Shown piece by piece: positions 9,114-57,947 of a stretch of DNA of 59,460 nucleotides. The notes under the pieces were generated by a model. It saw only the letters and a program-made list of their open reading frames with translations. It did no database searches and was not told where the DNA came from. This stretch comes from Deltaproteobacteria bacterium. GTDB taxonomy: Bacteria; Desulfobacterota; Binatia; DP-6. The position numbers and the translations under genes are program-made. The stretch spans positions 1 through 59,460 of the forward strand of contig VBKJ01000151.1 of assembly GCA_005879795.1 (NCBI GenBank), in the 5' to 3' direction. The first letter of the stretch is position 1. Every line of letters begins with the position of its first letter.

Positions 9114-10097
9114 TCACTCGATGGGCACGACGGGCCGCCTGTCGCCGTCGAGCTGGTGCAGGTACTCGGCGATGCCGTAGCCGGTGCGGCCCTCGTAGGT
9201 CCAGCGCGCGAGCCCCTCGTTGATGAGCGTGCGCCGCCCGCCCACCTCGTGCGCCACCGGCGCCACGCGCAGGCAGTCGCCGCGCAGCGCGTGCACGCGC
9301 CCGCGCTTGTCGGTGGCGCGCACGTGCGTGACCGCGTGGGTGAGGCGGTCGGCCGCGAGCTCGGTGCGGACGGCCCACGCGCGGATGCTCGTCGCCTCGC
9401 CGTCGCGCCACACCCAGCCGCGGTGGAGATCGCCCGCCTCGGTGCCGATGCGGATGCCGCCGAAGTGCACCCCGTCGCCGACGTTGATCGAGAACCAGCG
9501 CCACATGGCTGATCCGCCCCAGCGCCGCGGTCCCCACGACTTGTCGCGGTTGCCGCGCGCCTCGCCGAGCGTGTGGTTCACCCCGTCGGCCTCGATCCAG
9601 CCGCGCCAGCGGCCGGCCTGCTCGAGGTGCCCCTTGCCGACGCTCGCGCGCGTGGCCGCGCTCGGCCCGGCGCCGGCGACGCCCTGGCCATCGCTCCCGA
9701 CCGCAGGCGTGAGCGCGCGGAAGACGAGGTCGAGGGCGACGTGGGCGGTACGGGTCGGGCGGCGTCCGGCCAGGTCCCGCACCGCCGCCTCGGCGTCGCA
9801 CGTGATGCGCCACTCCGCCATGGGCCGGAGGCGCTCGTAACGGACGCCGGCTGCCGCGAGGTCGCTGTCGGTCATCTCGGGCTGCGGGCGGACGCCGTGA
9901 ACGGTCGCCAGGTCCGTGCCCGGGAGCCACACCGAGAGCCCGACATCCATCGTGCCCTCGTTCGGCCGCACACCGATGCGCGTGAAGAGGCCGGTGTCGG
10001 TCACCGGGTCGTAGGCGTTGAAGTAGTAGGACTCGCTCCAGGCGGTGTCGGGCTCGACCGGGTGCGCGAAGTCATGCCGCTCATCCAGGATCGGCAT
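9114..10097 (-). CDS. DUF7064/DUF7065-like (hydratase/AttH-fold) protein
   Basis: 327 residues resembling the lipocalin-like two-domain proteins annotated DUF7064/DUF7065, distant relatives of CrtC/AttH. Landmarks: W-x-ESYYFNAYDP near 19-31, and RDKSWGPRRWGG near 184-195 followed by a W-rich strand. A paralogue with the same RD(K/R)SWG block lies at 26778-27866, also in a catabolic operon. The function of the family is unsettled. Its starting ATG is 3 bp after the PPOX gene. Confidence 0.6.
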   Translation of the reverse strand: MPILDERHDFAHPVEPDTAWSESYYFNAYDPVTDTGLFTRIGVRPNEGTMDVGLSVWLPGTDLATVHGVRPQPEMTDSDLAAAGVRYERLRPMAEWRITCDAEAAVRDLAGRRPTRTAHVALDLVFRALTPAVGSDGQGVAGAGPSAATRASVGKGHLEQAGRWRGWIEADGVNHTLGEARGNRDKSWGPRRWGGSAMWRWFSINVGDGVHFGGIRIGTEAGDLHRGWVWRDGEATSIRAWAVRTELAADRLTHAVTHVRATDKRGRVHALRGDCLRVAPVAHEVGGRRTLINEGLARWTYEGRTGYGIAEYLHQLDGDRRPVVPIE

Positions 10098-15213: not shown

Positions 15214-15629
15214 CGATGGCGCTGCACCCCGACTACCCGTTGCCCGACGTCGACGATCCGGTCATGCGGCCGTTCTGGGAGGGCGCGCGGGAAGGGAAGC
15301 TGATGCTGCAGCGCGAGCGCGCGACGGGCCGCGTGCACTGGCCACCGAAGCCCGAGTACTGGAAGGGCGGCGGCCGGCTCGAGTGGTTCCAGGCGAGCGG
15401 GAGGGGCCGCGTCTACTCCTACGTGATCGGCTACGAGCCCTTCCTGCCCGCCTTCCGCGACCTGCTGCCGCTCATCATGGTGCTGGTCGAGGTCGAGGAG
15501 GGTCCGCGCCTGGTCGGCTACATGGTGCGCGCGACGCCGGCCGAGATGTCCTTCGGCATGGAGGTGCGTGTCGTCTTCGAGCGGCTCACCGAGCGGGTCA
15601 CGCTGCCCGTGTGGGAGCCCGCGCGCTGA
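15210..15629 (+). CDS. DUF35 OB-fold protein, partner of the Ltp2-like enzyme, lacking the zinc ribbon
   Basis: 139 residues from GTG 15210 (GTGA overlap with the thiolase stop); ATG 15216 is an equally good start. The C-terminal OB-fold is clear (GRGRVYSYVIGYEP, LIMVLVEVEEGPRLVGY). The N-terminal helix and ribbon region 'RPFWEGAREGKLMLQRERATGR' (shortened) is present in outline, but the protein contains no cysteine at all, whereas DUF35/ChsH2 proteins usually carry a four-cysteine zinc ribbon. It may have replaced zinc by packing, or need another metal-free mode. Confidence 0.82.
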   Translation: MTMALHPDYPLPDVDDPVMRPFWEGAREGKLMLQRERATGRVHWPPKPEYWKGGGRLEWFQASGRGRVYSYVIGYEPFLPAFRDLLPLIMVLVEVEEGPRLVGYMVRATPAEMSFGMEVRVVFERLTERVTLPVWEPAR

Positions 15630-22426: not shown

Positions 22427-23590
22427 ATGGACTTCTCGTTCTCCGCGCGCGAGCTCGCTTTCGCCGAGGAGGCGCGTGCCTGGCTCGAGGCGAACGTGCC
22501 GCCCGCCTGGCGCCGTGACCACTGCTGGTCGCGCGGCGACGATTCGCTCTGGCTCGCGATCGCGCGCGCCTGGCAGCGGAGGCTCCACGAGGGCGGCTGG
22601 GCGGCGATCTCCTGGCCGCGCGAGCACGGCGGCCGCGGCGCGACGGTCATCGAGCGCTGGCTCTTCGAGGAGGCGCTCGACCGCGTGGGCGCGCCGCGGC
22701 CCGCCGCCGGCGCCTACGTCGACCTGATCGGGCCGGCCATCCTCCGCCACGGGACGGAAGCGCAGCGCCGACGCTTCCTCACGCGACTCCTCTCCGGCGA
22801 CGACCTCTGGTGCCAGGGTTTCTCCGAGCCCGGCGCCGGCTCGGACCTGGGCGCGCTGCGCACGCGGGGCGAGCGGCGGGGCGACGCCTTCGTCGTGAAC
22901 GGCCAGAAGGTGTGGACCAGCTACGCCGACGTCGCCGACTGGTGCTTCCTCCTCTGCCGCACCGAGCCCGAGGCGCCGAAGCACCACGGCCTGAGCCTGC
23001 TCCTCGTCGACATGAGGAGCCCGGGCATCACCGTACGCCCCTTGAAGCAGATCACGGGCGACGCGGAGTTCTCGGAGGTCTTCTTCGAGGACGTGCCCGT
23101 GCCGGCCGAGATGATGGTGGGCGCGCCCGGCGCCGGCTGGCAGATCGCGATGGGCATCCTCGCGCACGAGCGCGGCCCGGTGTGGACCTTCACCTTCCAG
23201 CGCCAGATCCGGCGGAGCCTCGAGCGGCTGGTGAGGGACGCGCGCGCGCACCCGGCCGCGCGCCGGGCGCTCGCGGACCCGGGATACCGCCAGCGGCTCG
23301 CGCAGGCGCACATCGAGGTGGAGCTGCTCCGCCTGGTCGGCTACCGGAGCCTGACGCGCCTCCTGCGCACGGGGCAGCCGGGTGTGGAGAGCTCGATCGA
23401 GAAGGTGCTCGGCAGCGAGACCGACCAGCGCCTCCAGGAGCTGGCGATGGAGGTGCTCGGGCCGTGGGCAGTGCTCGACGACGAGCGCCGCCGCGCCTAC
23501 CTCTACTCCCGCTCGGAGACGATCATGGGCGGGACCTCCGAGATCCAGCGCAACCTGATCGCCCAGCGCATGCTCGGGCTGCCGCGGTGA
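22427..23590 (+). CDS. Acyl-CoA dehydrogenase
   Basis: 387 residues, complete: MDFSFSARELAFAEEARAWL, GFSEPGAGSDLGALRT in the FAD-binding middle domain, and GGTSEIQRNLI with Glu372. It is a standard homomeric-type dehydrogenase of the FadE group. The downstream membrane gene begins inside its stop codon (GTGA at 23587-23590), an odd partner for a dehydrogenase. ATG 22427 gives the family N-terminus; longer upstream readings are antisense to the hydrolase. Confidence 0.92.
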   Translation: MDFSFSARELAFAEEARAWLEANVPPAWRRDHCWSRGDDSLWLAIARAWQRRLHEGGWAAISWPREHGGRGATVIERWLFEEALDRVGAPRPAAGAYVDLIGPAILRHGTEAQRRRFLTRLLSGDDLWCQGFSEPGAGSDLGALRTRGERRGDAFVVNGQKVWTSYADVADWCFLLCRTEPEAPKHHGLSLLLVDMRSPGITVRPLKQITGDAEFSEVFFEDVPVPAEMMVGAPGAGWQIAMGILAHERGPVWTFTFQRQIRRSLERLVRDARAHPAARRALADPGYRQRLAQAHIEVELLRLVGYRSLTRLLRTGQPGVESSIEKVLGSETDQRLQELAMEVLGPWAVLDDERRRAYLYSRSETIMGGTSEIQRNLIAQRMLGLPR

Positions 23591-25161
23591 CTTCGGGCGC
23601 GCGCGGTCGGCCCGCGCAGCCGTCGCCGCTCCGCCGCTGGCTGGCGCCTCCGTTCACGGTGTTCGTGTTCCTGATCCACCCGTCGCTCGGCCTCTGGCGG
23701 CCCGGCGGGCTGCTCCAGGACCCCGGCACCGGGTGGCACCTCGTGACCGGCCGCTACATCCTCGACACGGGCTCGGTTCCGGCGCGCGACCTCTTCTCGT
23801 ACACCGCCGCCGGCCACCCGTGGATCGACCAGTCCTGGCTCTTCGACGCGACGAGTGCGCTCCTCGTCCGGCTGGGCGGCCTGCCGCTCTTCGCAACCGT
23901 CTCCGCGCTCGTCTACGCGTTCATCCCTGCGCTCGTCTTCCGCCGCGCGCTGCGCATCGGTGCGGGCCTGGCGCCGGCGCTCGGGCTCACGGTGCTCGCG
24001 TACCTGGTGCTCTGCTCGCACGCGATCGCGCGCCCCCACATCGTGACCTACGTGTTCTTCGCGCTCGTCCTCGAGCGGCTGGACGACTTCCAGACCGGGC
24101 GCCTGCCGGCGCGAGCCCTCTGGTGGCTGCCGCTCCTCGCGCTCGTGTGGGCGAACGTGCACGGCGGCTTCCTCGTCGGCTTCGCGCTGGGCGGGACGTT
24201 CGCGGGCGTGGCGGCGCTGCGCGCCGTCGTGCTCCGCGATCGCGAGGAACGGCGGCGGGCGCTCGTCCTCGCCGCCCTGCTGGCGGCGATGGGGCTCGCG
24301 ACGCTCGTGAACCCCCACGGCCCGCGGCTCTACACCGCCGTCCGGGAGTACCTCGGCCTGCGCTCGATTCGCTACTTCCACGAGTTCCAGAGCCCGGACT
24401 TCCTGGGCGGCAGCGTGCCCGTGCTCTCCTTCGAGGCGCTCGCCCTGATGCTCCTCGTCGTCCTCGGGCTCGGGGGGAGGAGGCTCGCGTGGGTGGAGGT
24501 GACGCTGCTCGTCTTCTTCCTGCACCAGGCGCTGCACTCCGTGCGGCACATGAACCTCTTCGCCATCGTGGCCGCACCGATCATCGCTCGGGAGCTCACG
24601 CCCTGGCTCGAGAGCCGTAAGCCGGCGCTCCGTGAGCGCTGGCGGGAGATCGCGCGCGAGCAGGCGGCGCTGCGCTCGCCGCTCGTCTACTTTCCCGCCG
24701 TGTGCGCGCTCTTCGTGGCGCTTGCCCTGGCGGGCGTCCTGCGGCTTCCGCACACGCTCGATGACCTCCAGCTCAGCCGTGGGGCGGCGGAGTTCATCGC
24801 GGCGCACAGAGACCGGTTCGGCCGGTCGTTCAACACCGACGACCTGGGCGGCTCGCTCATCTATCGCTTCTGGCCGGGGCTGCGGGTCTTCGTCGACGAC
24901 CGCAATGCCGTCTACGGCGACGACTTCATGATGGGCCGGTACTTTCGCGTCTTCTACGGGCAGAGGGGCTGGAGGAAGGTTCTCGAGAAGTACGGCGTGA
25001 CGGCCGCCGTGGTCGACCTGGGCGCCCAGTGCACGGCACTGCTGCGCACCGCGCCCGACTGGCAGCTCGTCTACGAGGACCGGCTGAACGCGATCTTTCT
25101 CCGGCGCGACGCGTCGGGAGCTATCCTCCCCAGCTCGACACGTCCACCCCGAGCGCCTTGA
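23587..25161 (+). CDS. Polytopic membrane protein (glycosyltransferase-like, unknown)
   Basis: 524 residues from GTG 23587. About nine to eleven hydrophobic segments fill residues 20-400, followed by a soluble tail of about 120 residues (FNTDDLGGSLIYRFWPG, VFVDDRNAVYG). The first extramembrane loop reads DPGTGWHLVTGRYILD then SYTAAGHPWIDQSWL. The same loop plan (D..W..vr.G..SYTAAGHPWI) recurs in the protein at 47466, so these are paralogues. The layout resembles GT-C membrane glycosyltransferases (lipid-linked sugar donors) but no named family is certain. The 3' end overlaps the convergent MerB-like gene by 41 bp. Confidence 0.7.
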   Translation: MTSGARGRPAQPSPLRRWLAPPFTVFVFLIHPSLGLWRPGGLLQDPGTGWHLVTGRYILDTGSVPARDLFSYTAAGHPWIDQSWLFDATSALLVRLGGLPLFATVSALVYAFIPALVFRRALRIGAGLAPALGLTVLAYLVLCSHAIARPHIVTYVFFALVLERLDDFQTGRLPARALWWLPLLALVWANVHGGFLVGFALGGTFAGVAALRAVVLRDREERRRALVLAALLAAMGLATLVNPHGPRLYTAVREYLGLRSIRYFHEFQSPDFLGGSVPVLSFEALALMLLVVLGLGGRRLAWVEVTLLVFFLHQALHSVRHMNLFAIVAAPIIARELTPWLESRKPALRERWREIAREQAALRSPLVYFPAVCALFVALALAGVLRLPHTLDDLQLSRGAAEFIAAHRDRFGRSFNTDDLGGSLIYRFWPGLRVFVDDRNAVYGDDFMMGRYFRVFYGQRGWRKVLEKYGVTAAVVDLGAQCTALLRTAPDWQLVYEDRLNAIFLRRDASGAILPSSTRPPRAP

Positions 25162-25846
25162 TGCCGGCGATGATGCGCTCGGGCTGGACGCGCGCGGGCG
25201 GCCAGTCGTAGCGCCACATGCGGTTCGCCGCCGTGTCGGCGACGAAACGCCGCGCCTGCTCGAGCGTGAAGAGGACGCCGCGGCGGCAGATCTGCCGCTC
25301 GTAGGCGTCGGCGTGCGCGGCGTCGGCCACGTAGTTCATGCTGTCGCACATGGAGATGATGTTGGTCGTGTTCCACTCGCGCGGGCTCGTGCTCACGTGG
25401 ATCAGGACGGACGGGGGTGTGTGCGACAGCACCTCGCCGTCGCGCGTGACGAGCGTGACCGGCGCGAGGCAGCACGCGCAGTAGGACTCGAGGCGCACCT
25501 CCTTGCCCGCGAAGGGCGGCATGCGCGAGAGCGCGACCGACTCCATGGCGCAGCCGGCGAAGCCGTGGAACCTGCCGTCGACGAACACCTCGACCTGGCT
25601 CGGGTAGCTCGAGAAGGGCTGCAGTTTCAAGAGGTTGCAGCTCTGGGTGGCGTGGTCGACGGTGCAGATGAGGCCCAGGTCGAGCTCGCGGTAGACCTCG
25701 ATCAGCCGCACGCGCGGGAGGCCCGTCGCCGCGTGGGCCGCGCGCAGGTTCGGGCCGTGGCCGTGCGCGCACCAGTACTCGTAGAGGAACTGGCGGAGCC
25801 GGAGGGCGTCGTCGCTGAACCGGAACTCGGGCACCTGCTGCGGCAT
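25121..25846 (-). CDS. MerB-like (alkylmercury lyase family) protein
   Basis: 241 residues. An N-terminal winged-helix-like part (about 10-60) precedes a MerB-like core: GCAMES places Cys99 and Glu102 where MerB has Cys96 and Asp99; SYCACC (121-126) gives three extra cysteines; SMCDSMN gives Cys167 as counterpart of MerB Cys159. In MerB the Cys-Asp-Cys triad splits carbon-mercury bonds. The Asp-to-Glu change and the lack of merA, merT or merR nearby argue for a different substrate. Last gene of the seven-gene operon. Assignment by motif spacing only. Confidence 0.6.
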   Translation of the reverse strand: MPQQVPEFRFSDDALRLRQFLYEYWCAHGHGPNLRAAHAATGLPRVRLIEVYRELDLGLICTVDHATQSCNLLKLQPFSSYPSQVEVFVDGRFHGFAGCAMESVALSRMPPFAGKEVRLESYCACCLAPVTLVTRDGEVLSHTPPSVLIHVSTSPREWNTTNIISMCDSMNYVADAAHADAYERQICRRGVLFTLEQARRFVADTAANRMWRYDWPPARVQPERIIAGIKALGVDVSSWGG

Positions 25847-25860
25847 GGCGTTTCCCTCCG

Positions 25861-26781
25861 TCAGGGAAGGCGCGGGAGGACGTCGTCGCCGTAGCGCGCG
25901 ATGCGCTCGGCGTGCTCGGCGCGCGAGGCGGCGGGGAGGTTGACGTTCAGGTAGGTGACGCCGGCGGCGCCGAGCTCGGCCACGTCGGCCAGGAACGCGT
26001 CACGGTCGAAGCGCGGAGTGCCGAAGGCGCCGAGGCCGCGGGCCGTGATGGCGACCTCGAGCGGCCGGGTGCGGCCGGCGGCGCGCGCGACCTGGGCCGC
26101 GTAGGCGAGCCGCTCGCGCACGTCGGCCGCCGACTCGATGGCCGGCGTGCGCCGCCGGCTCGCGTGCGCGGCGGGGTTGAAGATCGGCATCCAGCCGTCG
26201 CCCAGCAGGACGGCGCGCCGGATGGCGCGCCGGCTGTTGCCCCCGACCCAGATGGGCGGGTGCGGCTCCTGCACCGGGCGCGGCAGCGCCGTGTGGCCCC
26301 GGGCGACGAAGTGCCTCCCCTCGAAGTGGACGTGCTCCACGCTCCACGCGGCCTTCATGGCGCGGATCGCCTCGTCGGCGAGGTCGTCGCGCTCCTCGAA
26401 GGGCACGCCGAGCGCCGCGAACTCGGGCTCCAGGTAGCCCGCGGCCACGCCGAAGACGAAGCGGCCGCCGGAGAGGACGTCGAGGCTCGCGGCCGCCTTC
26501 GCCGAGAGGAAGGGGTTCCGGTACGGCAGCACGTAGATGAAGGTGAGGAGCCGGATGCGCGCCGTCGCCGCGGCGGCGAAGGAGAGGGCGACGAAGGGAT
26601 CGAGCGCGTGATGGCCACCCGAACGCATCCACTCGTCGTGCGGGAAGGGATGGTCGGTCACCGCGACCGCGTCGAAGCCGGCATGCTCGGCGGCGCGCGC
26701 GATCTCGGCCACCCCCGGGGCGCTCACGAACTCGGCGCCCAGGTCCACACGCTGGGTGTGGAGGAGGAGCGCGCACCTCAT
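25861..26781 (-). CDS. LLM-class flavin/F420-dependent oxidoreductase
   Basis: 306 residues, luciferase-like TIM barrel of the TIGR03619-type F420 group: ARAAEHAGFDAVAVTDHPF, RIRLLTFIYVLPYRNP, SGGRFVFGVAAGYLEPEF, RPVQEPHPPIWVGGNSRRA. Such enzymes use F420 or FMN for hydride transfer or monooxygenation. The ATG overlaps the upstream DUF7064-like stop (ATGA 26778-26781). Probably acts in the same pathway as the operon's dehydrogenase and amidohydrolase. Confidence 0.9.
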   Translation of the reverse strand: MRCALLLHTQRVDLGAEFVSAPGVAEIARAAEHAGFDAVAVTDHPFPHDEWMRSGGHHALDPFVALSFAAAATARIRLLTFIYVLPYRNPFLSAKAAASLDVLSGGRFVFGVAAGYLEPEFAALGVPFEERDDLADEAIRAMKAAWSVEHVHFEGRHFVARGHTALPRPVQEPHPPIWVGGNSRRAIRRAVLLGDGWMPIFNPAAHASRRRTPAIESAADVRERLAYAAQVARAAGRTRPLEVAITARGLGAFGTPRFDRDAFLADVAELGAAGVTYLNVNLPAASRAEHAERIARYGDDVLPRLP

Positions 26782-27866
26782 GCGGCGGGGTCCAGGATCG
26801 ACGTGAAGCCCGAGGGCAGGTGCGGGCCGAGCACGAGCTGCTCGAGGACGCCGATCCCCTGGCGCTCCCCCAATCGCGCGCGGCAGACCTGCTGCACGTG
26901 GAGATGGCGCGGCTCCATGGGGTCCAGGTCGGTGAGGGGCCAGCTCTCACCCCCGACCGCGAGCTCGCCCTTCCACATGCCGTGGCCCCACTCGGGGTGG
27001 AGGTAACCGAGGCCGCACATCTGCGCGGTCAAGAGGGGCTCGAGCGAGATCTCGAGCCGCTCGCCGCGGTGGGGGGTGAGGATGATCTCCGCCGCGGCCG
27101 CCCGGCGCGTGCCGGGCTGCCAGCGCACGCGGTGCGCGACGGCGGCGACGGGCTCGACGGCGCCGTCGCCCAGGCGGAGCACGCTGCCGGCGGCGTGCGA
27201 CGGCCGCCCCTCCGCATCCTCGTTGACGCCGCAGTGCGTGCACAGGTCGTCGAAGTGGAGCGGGGCCCAGAGCCAGAAGAACTGCGGCGGCAGGCCCGGC
27301 GCGCCGCCCTCGGGCTCGCCCACCGGGCGTACGCCCCACGAGCGGTCGCGCACGCCGAGCGCGCGCAGGGGCGCGAGCGCGAGCCGGGCGCCGGCGGCGT
27401 TGATCGTCCCTTCCCAGAGGCCGAACTGCGTGAGGCGCGTCGTGTCTATGAAGAGCCGGCTCTCGACCCGCGCGGTGAAGCGCGGCTCCTCGAGCACCGG
27501 GCCGCGGGCGCGGAAGACCAGGTCCGCCTCGAGGCCGAAGTCGTTCGGCGCGACGCGCACGCGGAGCGTGCGGAGTGCCTCCACCACCTCGATCGCGATC
27601 GGCCCGACCCGCGTCTCGCCGCGCTCGGCGGGCGCGAGACGCGAGGCGTGCACCGACTGCTGGCGACCGTCGCGGATCACGGTGAAGGCCGCGTCCATGA
27701 CGCGCCGGTTCGGGTAGAGGCCGAGGGCGGCGCCGAAGAAGAGGTCGCCCTCGCGCGAGAACCCGTTGAAGAAATGGCGGTCGTAGAAGTTCCGGTCGCC
27801 GGTCCCGGGGTGCGCAACCGGCTCGGGCGTCTGGTGGATGAGGTAGTCGTCGAAGGCGGTGAGCAT
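26778..27866 (-). CDS. DUF7064/DUF7065-like protein, paralogue of 9114-10097
   Basis: 362 residues. Landmarks: DRNFYDRHFFNGFSREGD, RDRSWGVRPVGEP near 177-189, FWLWAPLHFDDLCTHCG, and a C-terminal EPRHLHVQQVCRA. The first domain would bind a hydrophobic ligand if the lipocalin/CrtC-like assignment is right. Coupled to the LLM gene by a 4-bp overlap and starting 4 bp after the 152-residue protein. Function unknown; repeated association with acyl-CoA catabolism suggests a hydratase or carrier role. Confidence 0.6.
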   Translation of the reverse strand: MLTAFDDYLIHQTPEPVAHPGTGDRNFYDRHFFNGFSREGDLFFGAALGLYPNRRVMDAAFTVIRDGRQQSVHASRLAPAERGETRVGPIAIEVVEALRTLRVRVAPNDFGLEADLVFRARGPVLEEPRFTARVESRLFIDTTRLTQFGLWEGTINAAGARLALAPLRALGVRDRSWGVRPVGEPEGGAPGLPPQFFWLWAPLHFDDLCTHCGVNEDAEGRPSHAAGSVLRLGDGAVEPVAAVAHRVRWQPGTRRAAAAEIILTPHRGERLEISLEPLLTAQMCGLGYLHPEWGHGMWKGELAVGGESWPLTDLDPMEPRHLHVQQVCRARLGERQGIGVLEQLVLGPHLPSGFTSILDPAA

Positions 27867-27870
27867 GGCG

Positions 27871-28329
27871 TCAGCCTTTCGAGATCTCGCCGAGGAGCGA
27901 TGGTTTGAGGACCGCGACGTCGCGCATCGTCTGGGCGGCCAGGTGCTCGGCGACGGCGGTGCGCGGGGCGACCGCCGTGTCGGGCGGGAGGGCGTCGATC
28001 GCCTCGAGCGCGGTGACGAGCGCGGCGCGCAGCGCCGCGGCGCGCGCGGCCGGCGGGCCGGCGGGCGCCGCGGCGAGCGCCGCGGCGATGCGCGCCGCCG
28101 CGGCGCCCTGCCCGAGCGCGGCCGCCGCGCGCTCGAGCGCCGCCGCGGCCGAGGCCGCCTCCGCCTCGTGGAGTACGGCCTTCACCTCGACGCGGTCGCG
28201 CAGGTTGCGCAGCACGTCGACGACGGCGAAGAGCTGGCCGCGCGCGAAGCGGCTCGTCACGTCGGGCAGGACGGCGTCGGTCAGCGTCCTGACCAGGCCG
28301 TCGATCAGGGTCTCGACGGGGATCGTCAT
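27871..28329 (-). CDS. Small alanine-rich helical protein next to APH-like kinase (LvaB/DUF6285-like?)
   Basis: 152 residues from ATG 28329, overlapping the kinase stop (ATGA). Mostly helical: LIDGLVRTLTDAVLPDVTSRFARGQ, AVVDVLRNLRDRVEV, then an Ala-rich middle, then VAEHLAAQTMRDVAVL. A small helical protein fused in phase to an APH-like kinase recalls LvaB, which activates the 4-hydroxyacyl-CoA kinase LvaA in Pseudomonas and belongs to the DUF6285-type proteins. The sequence match is weak by eye, so the assignment rests mainly on position. Confidence 0.5.
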   Translation of the reverse strand: MTIPVETLIDGLVRTLTDAVLPDVTSRFARGQLFAVVDVLRNLRDRVEVKAVLHEAEAASAAAALERAAAALGQGAAAARIAAALAAAPAGPPAARAAALRAALVTALEAIDALPPDTAVAPRTAVAEHLAAQTMRDVAVLKPSLLGEISKG

Positions 28330-29366
28330 GCCGGCGCTCCGGCGAGCCAGCCGCGCGTCATGCCGAGGAGGAGATGCAGAAAGGGAAGCTGGTGGTCGAA
28401 GATCGCCAGGCGCAGATCGGTCGTACGGCCGCTCGCGAAGACGTCCAGGCCGCTCAGCATGATGGCGATCATCTTGACGAAGGTGAGCACCTCGTAGTAG
28501 CGCAGGCGCTCGGGGTCGGCCGCGCGGCCCGAGGCCGCGGCCCAGCGCGCCACGAACTCCTCGGGCGGGAGCAGCGCGGAGGCGTACGGCGTCCCCGCAC
28601 GCCAGAGCGGCGACGCGCACCAGGCGACGTCCTCGAGCGGGTCGCCCAGGTGGACGAGCTCCCAGTCGAGGATGCCGGCGAGATGCGCGCCATCGGCCCC
28701 GCGCACGACGAGGAAGTTCCCCAGGCGGTAGTCGCCGTGCACGAGCGTGATCTCGTCGGTCGCGGGCGCGTGGCGGCGACACCAGAGGAGCGCCTCGGCG
28801 AGCGGCGGGTCGACGGGAAGCCCGCTCCGCCGGGCGCGCTCCTCCCAGCGTGCGAGCTCGCGCTCGGCGACCTCGCGGCCGCGGCGCGGCGCGCCCAGGA
28901 ACTGGAAGCCGTGCGCCCGCCAGTCGATCGCATGGAGGCGCGCGAGCGCACGCGCGACCTGGGGACCGAGCGCCGCGCGCTCGGCGTCGTCGAACGGACC
29001 CGAGCCGTCGGCGCGCGCGGCGGGGATCGGCACCTCGCCGGGGAGGCGCTCCATCACGTAGAAGGGCCGCCCGAGCACGGCCGGGTCGCGGGTGAACCAC
29101 GGGGTGGGCGGGGACGGCAGCGGGTCGTCGGAGAGCGCGTGCAGGACGCGGAACTCGGGCTCGAGGTCGTAGGGCTCGAGCACGCCGGCCACGGGCTCCC
29201 GCTTGGCGACGTAGCCGCGCCGCTCGCGTCCCACCTCGACGTCGAAGACGAAGGTCTCCTGCGAGAAGCCCTCGGTCGAGCGCTCGAGGTGCGTCACGCG
29301 CACGGGCGCGCCGAGCCGCTCGCCGACGAAGCGCTCGAGCCGGGCGCCGAGGTCGTCGTCCGCCAT
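28326..29366 (-). CDS. APH-like phosphotransferase (LvaA/ACAD10-type)
   Basis: 346 residues, aminoglycoside-phosphotransferase fold: N-lobe Lys55 in YVAKRE, YVMERLPGE hinge, catalytic Asp212 and Asn217 in HGDYRLGN (210-217), metal Asp234 in LDWE. In ACAD10/ACAD11 and in LvaA this kinase type phosphorylates 4-hydroxyacyl-CoA so that a dehydrogenase-fold partner can remove phosphate and move the double bond. Here a dehydrogenase (30465-31640) and a small helper (27871-28329) are in the same operon. ATG 29366 chosen; it lies 2 bp after the amidohydrolase stop. Confidence 0.88.
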   Translation of the reverse strand: MADDDLGARLERFVGERLGAPVRVTHLERSTEGFSQETFVFDVEVGRERRGYVAKREPVAGVLEPYDLEPEFRVLHALSDDPLPSPPTPWFTRDPAVLGRPFYVMERLPGEVPIPAARADGSGPFDDAERAALGPQVARALARLHAIDWRAHGFQFLGAPRRGREVAERELARWEERARRSGLPVDPPLAEALLWCRRHAPATDEITLVHGDYRLGNFLVVRGADGAHLAGILDWELVHLGDPLEDVAWCASPLWRAGTPYASALLPPEEFVARWAAASGRAADPERLRYYEVLTFVKMIAIMLSGLDVFASGRTTDLRLAIFDHQLPFLHLLLGMTRGWLAGAPA

Positions 29367-29368
29367 GC

Positions 29369-30448
29369 TCAGGCCGGCAGCCGGTAGAATTCGGCCGCGT
29401 TCGCGCCCATGATGCGTGCCTTCACCTCGGGTGCCAGGTCGGTGCGCTCGCGGAGCCCCCGCGTCGAGTTCGGGAAGTCGCTGTCCCAGTGCGGATAGTC
29501 GCTCGCGTACATGACGAAGTGCGCCCCGAGCGCCTGGGTGACGAAGGGAAGCGCGCTCTCCTCGGGCTCGCAGCTCACGTAGAGCTGCCCGCGCGCCAGG
29601 TACTCGCGCGGCTCGCGCCTGCACTCGGGCGTCAAGCGGCCACGCTTCTCCACGTGCTCGTCCATCCGGTCGAAGAAGTAGGGCACCCAGCCCACGCCCG
29701 ACTCGAGGAGCGCGACGCGCAGCCGCGGGTGCCGCTCGAAGACGCCCCCCAGGACGAGCGCGGTGGTCGCGACCATCATGTCGAAGGGGAAGCTCACCAC
29801 GTGCACCTGGAGGTAGTTGTCGAAGCGCTCGGCCCCGAGCGGCGGGAGGTGGATGCCGGGAGCGCCGTGGATGCCGAGCGGTATCTCCAGCTCCGCGGCG
29901 GCGGCGTAGAAGGGCTCCAGGTCGGCATGGTCCAGGTTCCGGGTGCGGAGGACGGCGGGGACCATGATCGCGACCAGGCCGAGCTCCCGGGCCTCGCGCA
30001 TGATGCGGACGGACGTCGCCACGTCCTCGATCGGGACCAGACCGACGCCGAACATGCGGTGCGGGAACTGCCGGCAGTAACCGGCGAGCCAGCGGTTGTA
30101 GAGGCGCGCGAACTCGGCGGCGAAGGCGTGGTCGGTGAAGGCCGGCAGGCCGAGCGCGGCGCTCGGGAAGAAGACCATGGCGTCGATCCCCTCGCGGTCG
30201 GCGTCGCGCATCACGCCCTCGGCGCTGAAGGGGTTGGCGCCCCGGTCGACGCACAGGCCGTGCTTCGCGTGGCAGCCCGCCCCGGGCCCGGACGCGTTGG
30301 GGTAACGCCGGCCCTCGATCACGAGCGCCGCGCCCTCCTCGTCCGGGCGCGCCATGCGGATCTTTTCGGGGAAGCGGGCGAGGAGCTCGGCCATCAGCTC
30401 CGGGCCCTCGATCACGTGGGCGTCGCTGTCGACGACTCGCGTTGCCAT
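29369..30448 (-). CDS. Amidohydrolase-2 family enzyme (ACMSD-like)
   Basis: 359 residues, metal-dependent TIM barrel: N-terminal VVDSDAHVIE with His11, His194 in GIHGAPG, HVVSFPFDMM, and Asp317/His320 in ASDYPHWD. The family includes decarboxylases and C-C or C-O hydrolases of aromatic and cyclic acids (ACMSD, gamma-resorcylate decarboxylase). Typical of degradation operons in actinobacteria. It begins 16 bp after the dehydrogenase gene. Substrate unknown. Confidence 0.88.
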   Translation of the reverse strand: MATRVVDSDAHVIEGPELMAELLARFPEKIRMARPDEEGAALVIEGRRYPNASGPGAGCHAKHGLCVDRGANPFSAEGVMRDADREGIDAMVFFPSAALGLPAFTDHAFAAEFARLYNRWLAGYCRQFPHRMFGVGLVPIEDVATSVRIMREARELGLVAIMVPAVLRTRNLDHADLEPFYAAAAELEIPLGIHGAPGIHLPPLGAERFDNYLQVHVVSFPFDMMVATTALVLGGVFERHPRLRVALLESGVGWVPYFFDRMDEHVEKRGRLTPECRREPREYLARGQLYVSCEPEESALPFVTQALGAHFVMYASDYPHWDSDFPNSTRGLRERTDLAPEVKARIMGANAAEFYRLPA

Positions 30449-30464
30449 GGGAACTCCTCCGCTG

Positions 30465-31640
30465 TCAGCTGCCGCGGGGCAGGCCGAGGGCCTGCTCGGC
30501 GAGCAGGTTGCGCAGCACCTCCGAGGTGCCCGACGAGATGGTGACCGAGCGCGAGTAGAGATAGGCCTCCGCGCAGCTGCCCCGGCCCGGCGCGCGGGGA
30601 TCGTGCCCGAGCTGTGCGTAGGGACCCGTGAGCGCCAGCATGAGCTCCGCCGCGCGCTGCTGGATCTCGCTCCCGAAGAGCTTCTGGAGCGCGGCCTCGG
30701 GCGGCGCGTCGCCCGCGGCGTGGAGGCGCGGCAGGATGCGGAGGGTGTGCGCGCCGAACACCTCCGCCTCGATCCAGGCCTGCGCGACCCGCTGGCGGAA
30801 GGCAGCGAGGTCGGCCCGTCCCCGCTCGCGGCCGCCCCGGTAGAGGTCGGCGAGCGCGCGCGAGCCGTTCTGGAGCCGCACCTTGAAGTCGAAGGCCCAG
30901 AGCGTGCCGCGCTCGTGGGCGAGTGCGCCGCGGATGATCGGCCAGCCGCCGTTGATCGGGCCGACGACGTTCTCGGCCGGCACGCGCACCTCCTCGAGAA
31001 AGAGCTCGTTGAACTCCGAGCGGCCGCTCAGCTGCACGAGCGGCCGCCAGGTGATGCCCGGCGTGCGCATGTCGGCGACCAGGCAGCTGATGCCCCTGTG
31101 CCTGGGCGCCTCGGGGTCGGTGCGCACGAGGAGCAGGCCCCAGTCGGCGAAGTGCGCCTTGCTCGACCACACCTTCTGCCCGCTCACCACCCAGGCGTTC
31201 CCGTCGCGCACCGCCCTGCAGCGGAGCGAGGCCAGGTCGGAGCCCGCATTCGGCTCCGAGAAGCCGAGGCACCAGACCTGGTCGGCGGGGAGGATGGGCG
31301 GCAGCCAGCGGGCCTGCTGCGCCGGGGTGCCGAAGCGGATGAGCGTGGGGCCGACGATGTTGACGCTCACCGGATCGAGGATGTCCGGCGCGCGCGCGCG
31401 CGCCATCTCCTCGGTGAAGATGACCTGCTCGCGGAGGGTCGCGCCCCGCCCGCCGTGCGCGCGCGGCCACTGGATGCCGACCCAGCCGCCCGCCGCGAGC
31501 GCGCGCTGCCAGGTGCGCTGGAAGCGGCGCCGCTCCGCGTCGTCCTCGGGGACCGCCTCGCGCGGCAGGTGGGCCGCGAGCCAGGCGCGCAGTTCGGCGC
31601 GGAAGGCCTCCTCGGCCGGGGTGTAAGCGAGCCCGAACAT
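30465..31640 (-). CDS. Acyl-CoA dehydrogenase
   Basis: 391 residues from the ATG at 31640 (MFGLAYTPAEEAFRAELR); a longer in-frame start at 31706 adds 22 residues with no homology. Middle domain GFSEPNAGSDLASLRC; C-terminal GTSEVLRNLLAEQALGLPRG with Glu374. First gene of the operon with the APH-like kinase. In an Lva-type scheme it would be the dehydrogenase-fold enzyme that handles the 4-phosphoacyl-CoA; in a plain scheme it oxidises an acyl-CoA. Confidence 0.92.
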   Translation of the reverse strand: MFGLAYTPAEEAFRAELRAWLAAHLPREAVPEDDAERRRFQRTWQRALAAGGWVGIQWPRAHGGRGATLREQVIFTEEMARARAPDILDPVSVNIVGPTLIRFGTPAQQARWLPPILPADQVWCLGFSEPNAGSDLASLRCRAVRDGNAWVVSGQKVWSSKAHFADWGLLLVRTDPEAPRHRGISCLVADMRTPGITWRPLVQLSGRSEFNELFLEEVRVPAENVVGPINGGWPIIRGALAHERGTLWAFDFKVRLQNGSRALADLYRGGRERGRADLAAFRQRVAQAWIEAEVFGAHTLRILPRLHAAGDAPPEAALQKLFGSEIQQRAAELMLALTGPYAQLGHDPRAPGRGSCAEAYLYSRSVTISSGTSEVLRNLLAEQALGLPRGS

Positions 31641-31752
31641 GGCCTGGCAGGTCACGCCCGCGCTGCTCGAGGGCGGGCGGGATCCCGTACTCCAAACTCG
31701 CCGCACACGGCAAGAACGGGCGCGCGGGACGACGGGGCTCGAGTCGATGCCT

Positions 31753-31806
31753 CCGGCCAGCGCCAGGAAGGCCCGCGTGACCGGGAGTGGCGTGCTTCCA
31801 GGTCAC
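31753..31806 (-). pseudogene. 5' fragment of a gene-B copy (frameshifted)
   Basis: Begins with GTG at 31806 overlapping gene A's stop, just as the intact gene B starts at 33162. It has one extra base compared with gene B after the TWK codons, so the frame breaks within about ten codons. Similarity ends near 31753. The rest of the gene is missing. Confidence 0.6.
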
Positions 31807-31874
31807 CTCTCGGTCACTGGGGTGACCGTGATGCCGTGCTGGTCGGGGCCGCTGTCCAGGCGATACGTCGTCTC
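31753..31874. repeat. Long direct repeat, copy 1 (end of membrane gene A, start of gene-B remnant)
   Basis: 122 bp matching 33110-33229 in the same orientation, with about 11 mismatches and two single-base gaps counted by eye. On the minus strand it spans the last codons of gene A (ETTYRLDSGPDQHG), the GTGA junction, and the first codons of a gene-B copy (GTGACCTGGAAG). Confidence 0.85.
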
Positions 31875-32330
31875 GACCACCGTGCCCCTGTAGGCGCTCC
31901 GGAAGTGCACCCACGCAGGCAGGGGACACTGGCGGAAGCGCACGCGACAGTTGAAGAGCGCGATGCGGTTGTAAACATGGTGGTTGACGAATCCGTTGGT
32001 CGTCCGAGGGCACGCCCCGTCCGCGTGGGTGCGGACGACCTCCCACCGGTTCTCGAAGTTGTACATCGACGGGGCAGGCTGAAACAGCATCCACGCGGCA
32101 AGCGGCCATCCCGTCAGCTGGAAGCGCCGTAGCCCCGCCCGCCGCACTGTCTCGCTCAGCGGGAGTAGCAGGATGAAGCAGGCGAAAAACAGGACCGCGG
32201 ACAGAAGGAACAGGGCTGCCCGGTCTGGCTTCTCGGCGTTCGCCGCGATGAAGTCCACGATCGGGAGTCGCCCCCGGGCCGAGCCCGCACCGCTGGACGG
32301 AGCGGCCGCCCGCCGCTCGGCGACGGGCAT
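31803..32330 (-). CDS. Membrane protein A of a repeated membrane gene pair
   Basis: 175 residues from ATG 32330 with AAGGG upstream; an ATG at 32366 would add 12 residues but lacks a ribosome site. Two hydrophobic segments (AALFLLSAVLFFACFILLLPL and GWPLAAWMLF), then a soluble C-terminal part beginning PAPSMYNFENRWEVV, with Cys residues in ALFNCRVRFRQCPLPAW. 'W.LF.PAPSMYN' is reminiscent of the C-terminal half of HTTM/vitamin-K-carboxylase-like membrane proteins. Follows gene B at short distance; A and B may form one complex. Family uncertain. Confidence 0.6.
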   Translation of the reverse strand: MPVAERRAAAPSSGAGSARGRLPIVDFIAANAEKPDRAALFLLSAVLFFACFILLLPLSETVRRAGLRRFQLTGWPLAAWMLFQPAPSMYNFENRWEVVRTHADGACPRTTNGFVNHHVYNRIALFNCRVRFRQCPLPAWVHFRSAYRGTVVETTYRLDSGPDQHGITVTPVTER

Positions 32331-33162: not shown

Positions 33163-33229
33163 GGCTCGGTCACCGGGGCGACCGTGATGCCGTGCTGGTC
33201 GGGGTCGCTGTCAGGCGATACGTCGTCTC
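33110..33229. repeat. Long direct repeat, copy 2 (gene-A remnant and start of gene B)
   Basis: 120 bp, partner of 31753-31874. On the minus strand it joins the C-terminal codons of a lost gene A (33229-33159) to the intact start of gene B. A one-base deletion relative to copy 1 sits in the gene-A part (CTGACAGC instead of CTGGACAGC). Confidence 0.85.
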
Positions 33230-34411
33230 ATCGGTTCGTGCGAGTAGGTCGACCGCCTCGCATACGAGCCAGATCGCGATCAGCGCGCCCGCCCAGTTGA
33301 TCCCTTCGGAGGTGAGGAAGATCCTCAGGTAGCCGACGACGAAGATCCCGAGCAGACAGGCGCCGATGAGCGTGTGGCGCCAGCGCGACCGATACTCGTC
33401 GCGCAGCACCCACCAGACGATACCCGGGACGAGGAGCACGAGGCCGTCGTAGAAGTAGACGTACATGTTGGCGCTGACCGCGAGAAGGACCGTCAGGCCG
33501 AAGAGGCGCGGGAGAGCGGCCTCCGAGTCACGCCTGCGCCACCATGCGAGCATGGTCACCCCGAGCACGACGGCGACGCTCGCGAGCCATGGCGCCACGA
33601 CCGCGAGGTCAGAGCTCGTACCGCCGGTCGCGGTGCGCCAGAAGGCGTACAGGGTGAGCTGCTTCCACATCAGGGTCTTGTTCTGGACGACGCTCACGTA
33701 GTCGCGCGAGGTGTGCACGTACTCGTGCCAGCGCTCCAGACCGAGGGGCAGCGAGGCGAGCACCATCGTCGCGCCTCCCAGGCCCATGCCGGCCAGCACC
33801 CGCCACTGGCGTGCCAGCAGGCTCGCCGCCACGAAGAAGATGGCGAGGTTCGGCTTGATGAACAGCAGCGAGAGAAGCAGCCCGGCCACGAGCGTGCGGC
33901 GCCGGCGCCACGCCCACAGGCTGGCGGCAAGGATCAGGGACAGCATGCCACTGATCTGGCCGATGACGACGCTGGTGTTGAACGGCATGCTGGCGAGGAT
34001 GACGATCGCCGCGGTGGTGTGATCCTCGCCGCGTGCGGGGAGCGTGGCCCGGAGCAACGCGAGGGCACCGGCGACCGCGAGGACCTCGACGACGACGCAG
34101 AGAGCGTAGGCCCACCATTCCGGCAGCATGCCCAGCGGCGCCGTCAGGTAGATGCAGTATGGCGGGTACAGCCAGAAGTAGCCGCTCTCGAACGTGCGCG
34201 GGTAGATCGCGCTCAGGTCCCCGGCCACGAGCTGATGTCCGGTCTGGAAGAACTGGTGCCAGTCGCGCCGTACGATGGCATACGGGTCCGGGGACACGGC
34301 CAGGCTCCCGAACCAGCTGAACTGCATGAAGCCGGTGATCGTGAGCGGCGCGAGGCGCAGCAGCGCCCGGACCGTCCTCCGCGCCTTGGCGGCGAGCCGG
34401 GGGCCGGTCAC
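33170..34411 (-). CDS. GT87 (DUF2029) polyprenyl-phosphate-sugar transferase, chimeric 3' end
   Basis: 413 residues from GTG 34411, about ten hydrophobic segments. The first periplasmic loop DWHQFFQTGHQLVAGDLSAIYP carries an Asp typical of GT87 enzymes such as mycobacterial PimE, which take mannose from a polyprenyl-phosphate donor; NTSVVIGQISGMLSLILA and FIKPNLAIF are further family landmarks. Its last residues (DETTYRL then TATPTSTASRSPR) lie in the repeat copy 2: six codons in frame with a former gene A, then a frameshift. The natural C-terminus has therefore been replaced; probably little effect on the membrane core. Confidence 0.85.
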   Translation of the reverse strand: MTGPRLAAKARRTVRALLRLAPLTITGFMQFSWFGSLAVSPDPYAIVRRDWHQFFQTGHQLVAGDLSAIYPRTFESGYFWLYPPYCIYLTAPLGMLPEWWAYALCVVVEVLAVAGALALLRATLPARGEDHTTAAIVILASMPFNTSVVIGQISGMLSLILAASLWAWRRRRTLVAGLLLSLLFIKPNLAIFFVAASLLARQWRVLAGMGLGGATMVLASLPLGLERWHEYVHTSRDYVSVVQNKTLMWKQLTLYAFWRTATGGTSSDLAVVAPWLASVAVVLGVTMLAWWRRRDSEAALPRLFGLTVLLAVSANMYVYFYDGLVLLVPGIVWWVLRDEYRSRWRHTLIGACLLGIFVVGYLRIFLTSEGINWAGALIAIWLVCEAVDLLARTDETTYRLTATPTSTASRSPR

Positions 34412-57284: not shown

Positions 57285-57947
57285 GCCCGCTGTGGATGTC
57301 GCGCTCGCCGATCAGCTCCTCAGCACCACGCGCTCGGTCCGCAAGCGGCTCGACCTCCTCCGTCCGGTCGAGCCGGCCCTGATCGAGCGCGCGATCGAGG
57401 TCGCGCTCCAGGCGCCGACGGGCTCCAACTCGCAGGGCTGGCACTTCGTGGTCGTGACCGACGCGGAGAAGCGCGCCGGCCTGGCCGCGCTCTACCGGCG
57501 CGCGTTCCACGCCTACGTGAACCAGCAGATCCCCGGGCGGCCCGAGCTCCCGCCCGACGATCCGCGCGCCAGGCAGCTGCCGCGCATCCTCGACTCCGCG
57601 ACCTACCTGGCCGAACACCTGCACCAGGTCCCCGTGCACGCGATTCCATGCGTCGAGGGCCGGGTCGAGAACGCCGGCCCGCTTGCGCAGGCGTCGGTGT
57701 ACGGGTCGATCCTGCCCGCCGTCTGGTCGTTCATGCTGGCGCTCCGCGCGCGCGGTGTGGGCTCGGCGTGGACCACGCTGCACATCATGTTCGAGCAGGA
57801 GGCGGCGGCGCTCCTCGGCATCCCGCCGACCTGACCCAGGCCGCGCTGCTGCCGGTCGCCTACTTTACCGGCGCCGGGTTCAGGCCCGCCAAGCGCCTCC
57901 CCGCGCCCGCCCAGACGCACTGGAACCGCTGGGGAGCGCGGCGCTAG
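57262..57947 (+). pseudogene. Nitroreductase-family gene with a frameshift near its 3' end
   Basis: The first frame gives STTRSVRKRLD, QAPTGSNSQGWHFVVVTD, and GVGSAWTTLHIMFEQEAAALLGIPPT then stops at 57834. The +2 frame continues at once with DLTQAALLPVAYFTGAGFRPAKRLPAPAQ to 57947, which is the normal nitroreductase C-terminus. One missing base in the C-rich ATCCCGCCGACC (about 57821-57832) explains it. FMN-binding Arg and the 'APTGSNSQGW' site are intact. Either a sequencing error in a C run or a real loss of the last 35 residues. Start is provisional (GTG 57292 possible). Confidence 0.7.

What the first reader, a model, noticed from the sequence alone, without database searches (positions are those of the whole stretch)
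25121..31640. Seven-gene coupled operon joining an Lva-type kinase/helper/dehydrogenase trio with an amidohydrolase, LLM oxidoreductase, DUF7064-like and MerB-like protein
All seven genes run on the minus strand with gaps of 16 bp or less or 4-bp overlaps. APH-like kinase (HGDYRLGN), small helical protein and acyl-CoA dehydrogenase parallel LvaA-LvaB-LvaC, where 4-hydroxyacyl-CoA is phosphorylated and then dephosphorylated with double-bond migration. The extra amidohydrolase, flavin enzyme and MerB-like protein suggest an undescribed route for a substrate with a gamma-hydroxy group or a lactone.
Basis: partly seen in the sequence, partly recalled or inferred. Interest (0 to 1): 0.8.

Follow-up and report, generated by a model that had tools for sequence, protein, structure and literature searches.

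The report
Kinase-helper-lyase module removing water from alcohols
Three of the seven genes look like a module that uses ATP to phosphorylate an alcohol and then expels the phosphate to leave a double bond, combining parts of two known pathways in a way that also turns up in distantly related bacteria.

Summary
In detail: seven minus-strand genes, 25121-31640, with junctions of 16, 2, -4, 4, -4 and 14 bp. The 152-residue helper is a remote relative of DUF6285/LvaB, and the kinase lies on the LvaA side of the tree. The acyl-CoA dehydrogenase is not LvaC: it lacks the phosphate-binding residues. The likely elimination enzyme is the 'DUF7064-like' protein, which matches solved 25-phosphosteroid lyase (E 3.5e-55) and keeps the Asp that a deposited variant changes to Asn. 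Best reading: kinase + helper phosphorylate an alcohol and the lyase eliminates phosphate to give an alkene, as in 25-HSK/25-PSL but with a Lva-type kinase-helper pair. The trio recurs in three gene orders: in 11 class genomes (this one included; five with weak helper matches), in Myxococcota and, with weaker helpers, on Rhodococcus plasmids. Helper and lyase lie within 6 kb in 11 of 57 helper hits, 0.17 expected. The seven-gene order was not seen elsewhere among 148 class genomes. Substrate and activity are untested; no S25DH-type hydroxylase reached its cut-off. New variant of a known kind.

The parts
28326..29366 (-). APH-fold small-molecule kinase (346 aa), HGDYRLGN and LDWE motifs; module step 1
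   Evidence: Pfam APH 122.8 bits; PDB 9o56, 3dxp, ACAD11, 3ats; clade with kinases of other helper-lyase trios 100/99
27871..28329 (-). 152-aa all-helical protein, probable kinase partner, remote LvaB/DUF6285 relative
   Evidence: no Pfam hit over cut-off; hhalign 91-92% vs DUF6285; AF2 pLDDT 90.9; kinase beside it in 18 of 18 loci, this one included
26778..27866 (-). Rv3169-family / 25-phosphosteroid-lyase-like protein (362 aa), RDRSWG motif with D174; predicted phosphate-eliminating lyase, step 2
   Evidence: PDB 9fzn/9g2i/9g4c E 3.5e-55; NCBIfam Rv3169_fam 410 bits; Asp present in 76 of 76 loci compared
30465..31640 (-). acyl-CoA dehydrogenase, Tcur3483/4x28-like, not LvaC-like
29369..30448 (-). 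Amidohydro_2 family protein
   Evidence: its closest class relatives (68-73%) are on other contigs than the lyase and MerB hits
25861..26781 (-). LLM-class F420-type oxidoreductase (TIGR03619)
   Evidence: an LLM gene lies next to the MerB-like gene in four other genomes
25121..25846 (-). MerB-like protein, distant from true MerB
   Evidence: Pfam MerB 55.5 bits; NCBIfam MerB 22.4 of 200 needed; 16 of 148 class genomes
9114..10097 (-). second DUF7065/DUF7064 protein in the window, RDKSWG motif
22427..23590 (+). second acyl-CoA dehydrogenase, near the MerB-like gene here and in G001 and G003

Best explanation
The core is the middle three genes. The kinase P0005, probably bound by the small helper P0004, transfers phosphate from ATP to a hydroxyl group that beta-oxidation cannot handle (a tertiary or gamma/delta alcohol). 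The lyase P0003 then removes that phosphate together with a neighbouring hydrogen and leaves a C=C bond; net, one ATP pays for one dehydration. The flanking dehydrogenase, amidohydrolase, LLM oxidoreductase and MerB-like protein are ordinary pathway or accessory enzymes recruited around this core in this lineage. Shown by sequence: gene order, family memberships, the conserved Asp of the lyase family, the helper-DUF6285 relationship, repeated linkage of the three genes. Inferred: the kinase and lyase activities, the catalytic role of the Asp, the physical pairing of kinase and helper, and the substrate, most likely a branched isoprenoid or sterol-like alcohol or its CoA ester.
For: P0003 matches solved 25-phosphosteroid lyase over residues 2-303, 46% identical over the first 198 aligned positions. 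PDB 9g4c has Asn where 9fzn has Asp in RDRSWG; P0003 keeps Asp174, as do 76 of 76 loci, some of them the same region fetched twice. The published reaction pair is an ATP-dependent 25-hydroxysteroid kinase plus a phosphate lyase giving an alkene (PMC8449060, parts 1-3 of 5). Trio linkage: kinase-helper-lyase with mostly unrelated flanks in L019-L022, L068, L070, L092 and in G093; helper-kinase-lyase in five f9 genomes; lyase-kinase-small protein in Rhodococcus plasmids L153 and L157, and in L160 a kinase-small protein pair starting 3.5 kb from the lyase; helper-profile scores 10.0 (L153), 23.2 (L157), 46.9 bits (L160). Helper and lyase within 6 kb: 11 of 57 helper hits, 0.17 expected, all same strand. 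A kinase or phosphotransferase gene adjoins the lyase homologue in 6 of 8 annotated plasmid regions and lies beside it in 10 of 27 named loci. LvaB is reported to interact with LvaA by pull-down (Rand 2017, as cited in PMC6692424, passages).
Against: No activity is known for any protein here. The kinase is not in the 25-HSK/Rv3168 clade, so its substrate class may differ from steroids. 25-HSK was active alone as a monomer (PMC8449060) and recombinant ACAD10/11 were active in assays described without an LvaB (PMC12440821, passages), so a helper is not always needed. Most lyase homologues read in the class have no kinase within 1.5 kb: 7 of 29 did; 17 of 27 named loci had none close by with P0005 as query, several of them short contigs. 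In the five f9 genomes the helper matches are weak (E 5e-7 to 9.5e-4). The Rhodococcus kinases fall outside the window's kinase clade on long branches, and L153's small protein is a weak match (10.0 bits). Helper homologues also sit beside kinases with no lyase nearby. No S25DH-type hydroxylase reached its cut-off (best 63.8 of 984.75 bits). Five fetched plasmid stretches carry no annotation and were not counted.
Confidence: 0.7

Rival explanations
1. A Lva-type route: the kinase makes a 4-phosphoacyl-CoA and the acyl-CoA dehydrogenase P0007 eliminates phosphate and shifts the double bond.
For: LvaB-like helper; kinase on the LvaA side of the tree; acyl-CoA dehydrogenase first in the same run.
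Against: P0007 reads A-R-L-gap where 4 of 4 LvaC-type enzymes read R-R-H-R, and Ser in the column where they have the Asp of their Y/V-D-G motif (that this is the catalytic Asp is inferred). A separate kinase-DUF6285 pair exists elsewhere in the genome. Limited scans of trio loci showed no dehydrogenase with the signature, but recognised few dehydrogenases.
Confidence: 0.05
2. A true 25-hydroxysteroid dehydration step, the Sterolibacterium pathway, in this genome.
For: Lyase homology; dehydrogenase nearest Tcur3483 and 4x28, recalled as sterol side-chain enzymes; thiolase plus ChsH2-like OB-fold pair at 14032-15629.
Against: Kinase outside the HSK clade; no S25DH-type molybdenum hydroxylase over its cut-off. 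Steroid ring-degradation genes were not searched.
Confidence: 0.12
3. The DUF7064-like protein is a relative of the lyase with another reaction (isomerase, hydratase or phosphohydrolase), and the kinase step serves detoxification rather than dehydration.
For: The family is broad: 121 places at E 1e-20 or better in 75 of 148 class genomes, many without a neighbouring kinase.
Against: Asp present in 76 of 76 loci compared; repeated kinase linkage.
Confidence: 0.13

Closest known systems
25-hydroxysteroid kinase / 25-phosphosteroid lyase (25-HSK/25-PSL) of Sterolibacterium denitrificans
   Same: Lyase homologous (E 3.5e-55) with the same Asp motif; expected two-step ATP-dependent dehydration
   Different: Kinase from another clade; a helper gene is present; the genes are adjacent, whereas the 2021 paper saw no lyase candidate near the 25-HSK gene (PMC8449060); no S25DH over cut-off in the genome
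LvaA-LvaB-LvaC (levulinate catabolism)
   Same: APH-like kinase with a small DUF6285-related partner gene
   Different: LvaC-type dehydrogenase signature absent; a lyase of an unrelated family stands in the trio; helper gives no Pfam DUF6285 match
ACAD10/ACAD11
   Same: kinase homology; phosphorylation followed by phosphate loss
   Different: separate proteins; no R/H/R phosphate pocket in the dehydrogenase; kinase in a different clade
Rv3168-Rv3169 pair of mycobacteria and similar actinobacterial pairs
   Same: kinase next to an Rv3169-family protein (PMC5340868, passages; L086-L088, L093)
   Different: kinase of the HSK/Rv3168 clade; no helper found with P0004 in L086-L088 and L093; mycobacterial genomes were not searched for one

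Membership tests
Lva system | LvaA-type kinase | tested here: inconclusive
   P0005 is on the LvaA side of the tree but in a helper-linked clade, 100/98, outside the DUF6285+lva clade, 100/99
Lva system | LvaB/DUF6285 partner | tested here: inconclusive
   No Pfam DUF6285 match; remote homology by profile comparison, 91-92%
Lva system | LvaC-type dehydrogenase with R/H/R pocket | tested here: not met
   Signature in 4 of 4 lva-type and 0 of 7 other dehydrogenases, P0007 among them
25-phosphosteroid lyase / Rv3169 family | full-length homology above curated cut-off | tested here: met
   410.2 bits, cut-off 150; 9fzn E 3.5e-55
25-phosphosteroid lyase / Rv3169 family | the Asp changed in the deposited variant | tested here: met
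   Asp174 in RDRSWG; that it is catalytic is inferred
25-phosphosteroid lyase / Rv3169 family | phosphate elimination from a tertiary phosphoester | not testable with these tools
   needs an enzyme assay
25-HSK/25-PSL pathway | kinase of the 25-HSK clade | tested here: not met
   HSK/Rv3168 clade 100/99 excludes P0005; 9fsg is taken as 25-HSK from its length and neighbouring accession only
25-HSK/25-PSL pathway | S25DH-type molybdenum hydroxylase | tested here: not met
   TIGR03479 best 63.8 bits of 984.75 in own genome, 99.56% complete
ACAD10/ACAD11 | kinase and dehydrogenase fused in one chain | tested here: not met
   separate genes
Organomercurial lyase MerB | NCBIfam MerB cut-off | tested here: not met
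   P0001 22.4 bits of 200; the Pfam MerB domain cut-off is met, 55.5 of 27 bits

The most novel reading that the evidence does not exclude
A third, widespread and unrecognised ATP-dependent dehydration system: a Lva-type kinase with an LvaB-like partner feeding a 25-phosphosteroid-lyase-type enzyme, acting on hydroxylated branched or isoprenoid substrates other than 25-hydroxysteroids, with the LvaB-like family being a general partner of this branch of kinases.
Probability: 0.45. Interest if true: 0.72.

Novelty: new variant of a known kind. Interest (0 to 1): 0.56.

Why it matters
Removing water from an unreactive alcohol is hard, and PMC8449060 names only one other known ATP-dependent dehydration. 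If the prediction holds, a large family named only 'Rv3169 family' or DUF7064, found in 75 of 148 class genomes at E 1e-20 or better, gains a likely reaction. The small LvaB-like proteins gain a general role as partners of one kinase branch, and pairs annotated as phosphotransferase plus hypothetical protein can be read as catabolic rather than drug-resistance genes.

Tried and rejected
Tried without result: Foldseek of the helper model against the PDB gave nothing better than E 0.9. The VIA second looks gave best Z 6.2 for the helper (85 residues, 3.4 A) and 6.2 for DUF6285 (47 residues, 2.2 A), within the noise that the tool states for helical bundles; inconclusive. A plasmid search with P0004 found nothing. 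PDB sequence search with the helper found nothing up to E 1. Terminator/promoter scan uninformative. The regex hunt for LvaC-type signatures in other trio loci recognised only three dehydrogenases; a second look at L194 and L195 printed none.

Considered and rejected: the dehydrogenase as LvaC; the kinase as drug resistance (APH(3') equivalog 41.7 bits of 205); the MerB-like gene as mercury resistance (22.4 of 200); the seven genes as a conserved unit. MerB-like (E 1e-10) in 16, LLM (E 1e-60) in 19 and amidohydrolase (E 1e-60) in 73 of 148 genomes. In one search I compared 55 of 121 lyase places, all 17 MerB, all 22 LLM and 28 of the listed amidohydrolase places: outside this genome the nearest pairs were MerB-amidohydrolase 2.8 kb (G002) and 11.7 kb (G013), lyase-MerB 9.7 kb (G001), lyase-LLM 11.1 kb (G087) and 21.8 kb (G119). 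For LLM and amidohydrolase only the best 13-15 candidates per genome were scored and the amidohydrolase list was cut, so distant linked copies could be missed; one search shows weaker LLM and amidohydrolase relatives beside or near the MerB-like gene.

Rows dropped: one DUF6285 sequence with a stop (L064; 29 of 30 used); hhalign kept 19 of 21 helper rows. The kinase tree left out matches under 200 residues or with a stop, among them L005, L046, L051 and L104, and L052 gave no kinase match; the second tree used 44 rows. Kinases with a helper but no lyase needed 4 changes in the first tree and 2 in the second, so they are not one clade; the first tree warned of long branches meeting. The helper profile's 52 genomes include weak hits that are DUF6285 proteins (G014:C61 at least). 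Of 25 plasmid records with a lyase match I opened 13, of which 8 had annotation. The co-location expectation (0.17) assumes random placement in 4.4-Mb genomes and ignores relatedness among the 11 genomes.
Full report
1. Observation. The seven genes are real and placed as stated. They run on the minus strand from 31640 down to 25121 with junctions of 16, 2, -4, 4, -4 and 14 bp; all start with ATG and have third-position GC of 0.95-0.98. The genome is G000 of the search tool: 4,106,821 bases in 280 contigs, 99.56% complete, 3.91% contaminated. A same-class genome, G044, has a contig of the same length (138,199) as the record of 'Polyangiaceae bacterium UTPRO1'; from memory, UTPRO1 belongs to GTDB class Binatia, so the window probably does too.

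2. The key protein is the 'DUF7064-like' one. P0003 scores 410 bits against NCBIfam Rv3169_fam (cut-off 150) and matches PDB 9fzn/9g2i/9g4c, named 25-phosphosteroid lyase, at E 3.5e-55. The printed alignments show Asn in 9g4c where 9fzn has Asp, in the motif RDRSWG; P0003 has Asp174 there. In the 76 homologous loci where the motif could be read, the Asp is present in all 76, with R or K before it and WG after it (some loci are the same region fetched twice). That this Asp is catalytic is my inference from its replacement in a deposited structure.

3. Published chemistry. In Sterolibacterium denitrificans the tertiary 25-hydroxyl of the sterol side chain is phosphorylated by ATP (25-HSK) and the phosphate is then eliminated to give an alkene; in 2021 the lyase gene was unknown and no candidate lay near the kinase gene (PMC8449060, parts 1-3 of 5 read; passages of PMC7411048). 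A 2024 paper still calls the lyase putative (PMC11061730, passages). In the held library I found no paper describing the lyase gene or this trio (searches, judged from listings); the PDB entries show that the protein has since been solved.

4. The helper. P0004 has no Pfam match over a cut-off and no DUF6285 match; the one DUF6285 match in the genome lies on another contig, next to its own kinase. Profile-profile comparison still links the two families: hhalign probability 91.3%, E 9.6e-07, score 43.3 over 110 columns. Reversed profiles scored 18-19, and the best of 100 column-shuffled and 100 block-shuffled profiles scored 22.9. A second alignment of overlapping rows gave 92.1% and E 6.4e-07. 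A profile search with the helper alignment over the class also returned a DUF6285 locus, G014:C61, at E 1.2e-5. Predicted structures of helper and DUF6285 are confident and all-helical with six helices each (pLDDT 90.9 and 92.5), but I did not superpose them. In a Stutzerimonas plasmid DUF6285 follows a phosphotransferase and is followed by a histidine phosphatase, an acyl-CoA dehydrogenase, an SDR and an acyl-CoA synthetase, i.e. an lva-like operon. LvaB is reported to interact with LvaA by pull-down (Rand 2017, not held; cited so in PMC6692424, passages). Against a general need for a helper: 25-HSK works alone.

5. The kinase. In a tree of 44 kinases the window kinase is in a clade with six kinases of other helper-lyase trios (100/99), inside a larger helper-linked clade (100/98). 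The kinases next to DUF6285, including four from lva-type clusters, form another clade (100/99). 25-HSK/Rv3168-type kinases (100/99) and the ACAD11 group (100/98) are set apart by a branch with 96/91 support. So the kinase is closer to LvaA than to 25-HSK, but is its own branch. Several PDB rows are fragments with unusual composition, which the program flags. Some helper-linked kinases (L015, L016) and the three Rhodococcus plasmid kinases fall on the LvaA side outside the window's clade, so helper linkage is not confined to one clade.

6. The dehydrogenase is not LvaC. ACAD10/11 and LvaC share R626, H634 and R637 around the phosphate, beside a catalytic Asp (PMC12440821, section 7). Four of four dehydrogenases beside kinase-DUF6285 pairs carry R-x4-R-x2-H-x2-R; none of seven others does, and P0007 reads A-R-L-gap, with Ser in the column of the Asp in their Y/V-D-G motif. 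P0007's best solved relatives are Tcur3483 (6wy8/6wy9) and 4x28. From memory these are sterol side-chain dehydrogenases, and the Glu in its AHER motif is the base used by that type.

7. The trio is conserved; the seven are not. Helper homologues were found in 18 of 58 genomes, this one included, each with a kinase beside it (18 of 18). Kinase-helper-lyase in that order is in the window, G024, G031, G044, G001 (lyase frameshifted in the assembly) and named records L068, L070 and L092, in several different gene neighbourhoods; L069 is cut at the contig end. Across 148 class genomes the lyase family is in 75 at E 1e-20 or better and the helper profile in 52 at E 1e-3 or better, weak DUF6285 hits included. 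Of 57 helper hits, 11 lie within 6 kb of a lyase hit, all on the same strand, against 0.17 expected by random placement. Five of the 11 have helper-kinase-lyase order, with weak helper matches (E 5e-7 to 9.5e-4), and G093 has kinase-helper-lyase. In L023 the gene after kinase and helper is a shorter protein that resembles the window's second DUF7064 protein (29% identity) and has an RDHSWG motif. In Rhodococcus plasmids L153 and L157 the order is lyase, kinase, small protein; in L160 kinase and small protein start 3.5 kb from the lyase. The small proteins score 10.0, 23.2 and 46.9 bits with the helper profile. A cytochrome P450 is among the neighbours in L153 and L160, and CoA-ligase-type genes in all three. 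Of 8 annotated plasmid regions, 6 have a kinase or phosphotransferase directly beside the lyase homologue; L158 (Variovorax) has none and L160 has it 3.5 kb away. Of 27 named loci, 10 have a kinase beside the lyase (L067, L068, L070, L079 on the other strand, L085-L088, L092, L093). Against this, of 29 class loci read with 1.5 kb flanks only 7 had a kinase, and none lay beside the lyase in the seven loci titled Chloroflexi, Chloroflexota or Dehalococcoidia (L074 has a weak match 4.8 kb off) nor in L075, L076 and L078; some of these contigs are short.

8. The other four genes. A MerB-like gene is in 16 of 148 class genomes. It sits next to an LLM gene in G005, G002, G032 and G087, with amidohydrolase relatives (37-38%) nearby in G005 and G002, and near a relative of the window's second dehydrogenase (22427) in G001 and G003. 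Two cysteines of MerB align with cysteines of P0001, but similarity is weak (best E 2.2e-05). The amidohydrolase's eight closest relatives (68-73%) are on contigs without a listed lyase or MerB hit; the nearest lyase-LLM pairs outside this genome are 11.1 kb (G087) and 21.8 kb (G119) apart, and the nearest lyase-MerB pair 9.7 kb (G001). So the seven-gene run looks like a local assembly of an older trio with other catabolic genes, some of which associate loosely with one another.

9. Mechanism and substrate. Shown: homology, motif, linkage. Inferred: kinase plus helper phosphorylate a hydroxyl, lyase eliminates phosphate to an alkene. The lyase's known relative acts on a tertiary steroid phosphoester; LvaA and ACAD10/11 act on hydroxyacyl-CoAs. 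The window also has two AMP-binding CoA-ligase-type genes, a thiolase with a ChsH2-like OB-fold partner and further dehydrogenases, which fits a branched, CoA-activated substrate but does not identify it. No S25DH-type hydroxylase reached its cut-off (63.8 of 984.75 bits), so the anaerobic sterol route as published is unlikely here.

10. Verdict. A new variant of a known kind: an ATP-dependent dehydration module that joins a Lva-type kinase-helper pair to a 25-PSL-type lyase.

Noticed in passing
window 9114-10097 (-): A second DUF7065/DUF7064 protein with an RDKSWG motif, between an SMP-30/gluconolactonase and a PNPOx-like gene: a further possible phosphate lyase about 17 kb from the first.
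   Followed up: partly
window 14032-15629 (+): Thiolase-like gene followed at once by a ChsH2-type OB-fold protein, a pair recalled from sterol side-chain breakdown.
   Followed up: no
window 25121-26781 and L140, L143, L144, L147: A MerB-like gene and an LLM oxidoreductase are neighbours in several class genomes, in both orders: a possible two-gene unit of unknown purpose.
   Followed up: partly
window about 31640-31890 and 33170-33290: Similar short stretches (translations with TSTASRSP) recur about 1.3 kb apart upstream of the operon.
   Followed up: no
window 56163-57834 and L019/L020 left ends: LLM oxidoreductase next to a nitroreductase-like gene in the window, and a similar-looking pair some kilobases from the trio in G024/G031 (the second gene judged by eye).
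   Followed up: no
PMC8449060: A 30-kDa band identified as luciferase-type protein co-enriched with 25-HSK in S. denitrificans; an LLM gene follows the lyase gene here. Possibly coincidence.
   Followed up: no
L155 8918-11119 and L154 7018-9110: In two Rhodococcus plasmids the lyase homologue is next to a kinase annotated 'ecdysteroid 22-kinase family' or aminoglycoside phosphotransferase family, with PEP-utilizing or dikinase and tyrosine phosphatase genes nearby.
   Followed up: no
L079 (record titled Klebsiella pneumoniae MAG): A lyase homologue 56% identical to P0003 with a kinase 0.6 kb away on the other strand; the organism title looks doubtful for such genes.
   Followed up: no
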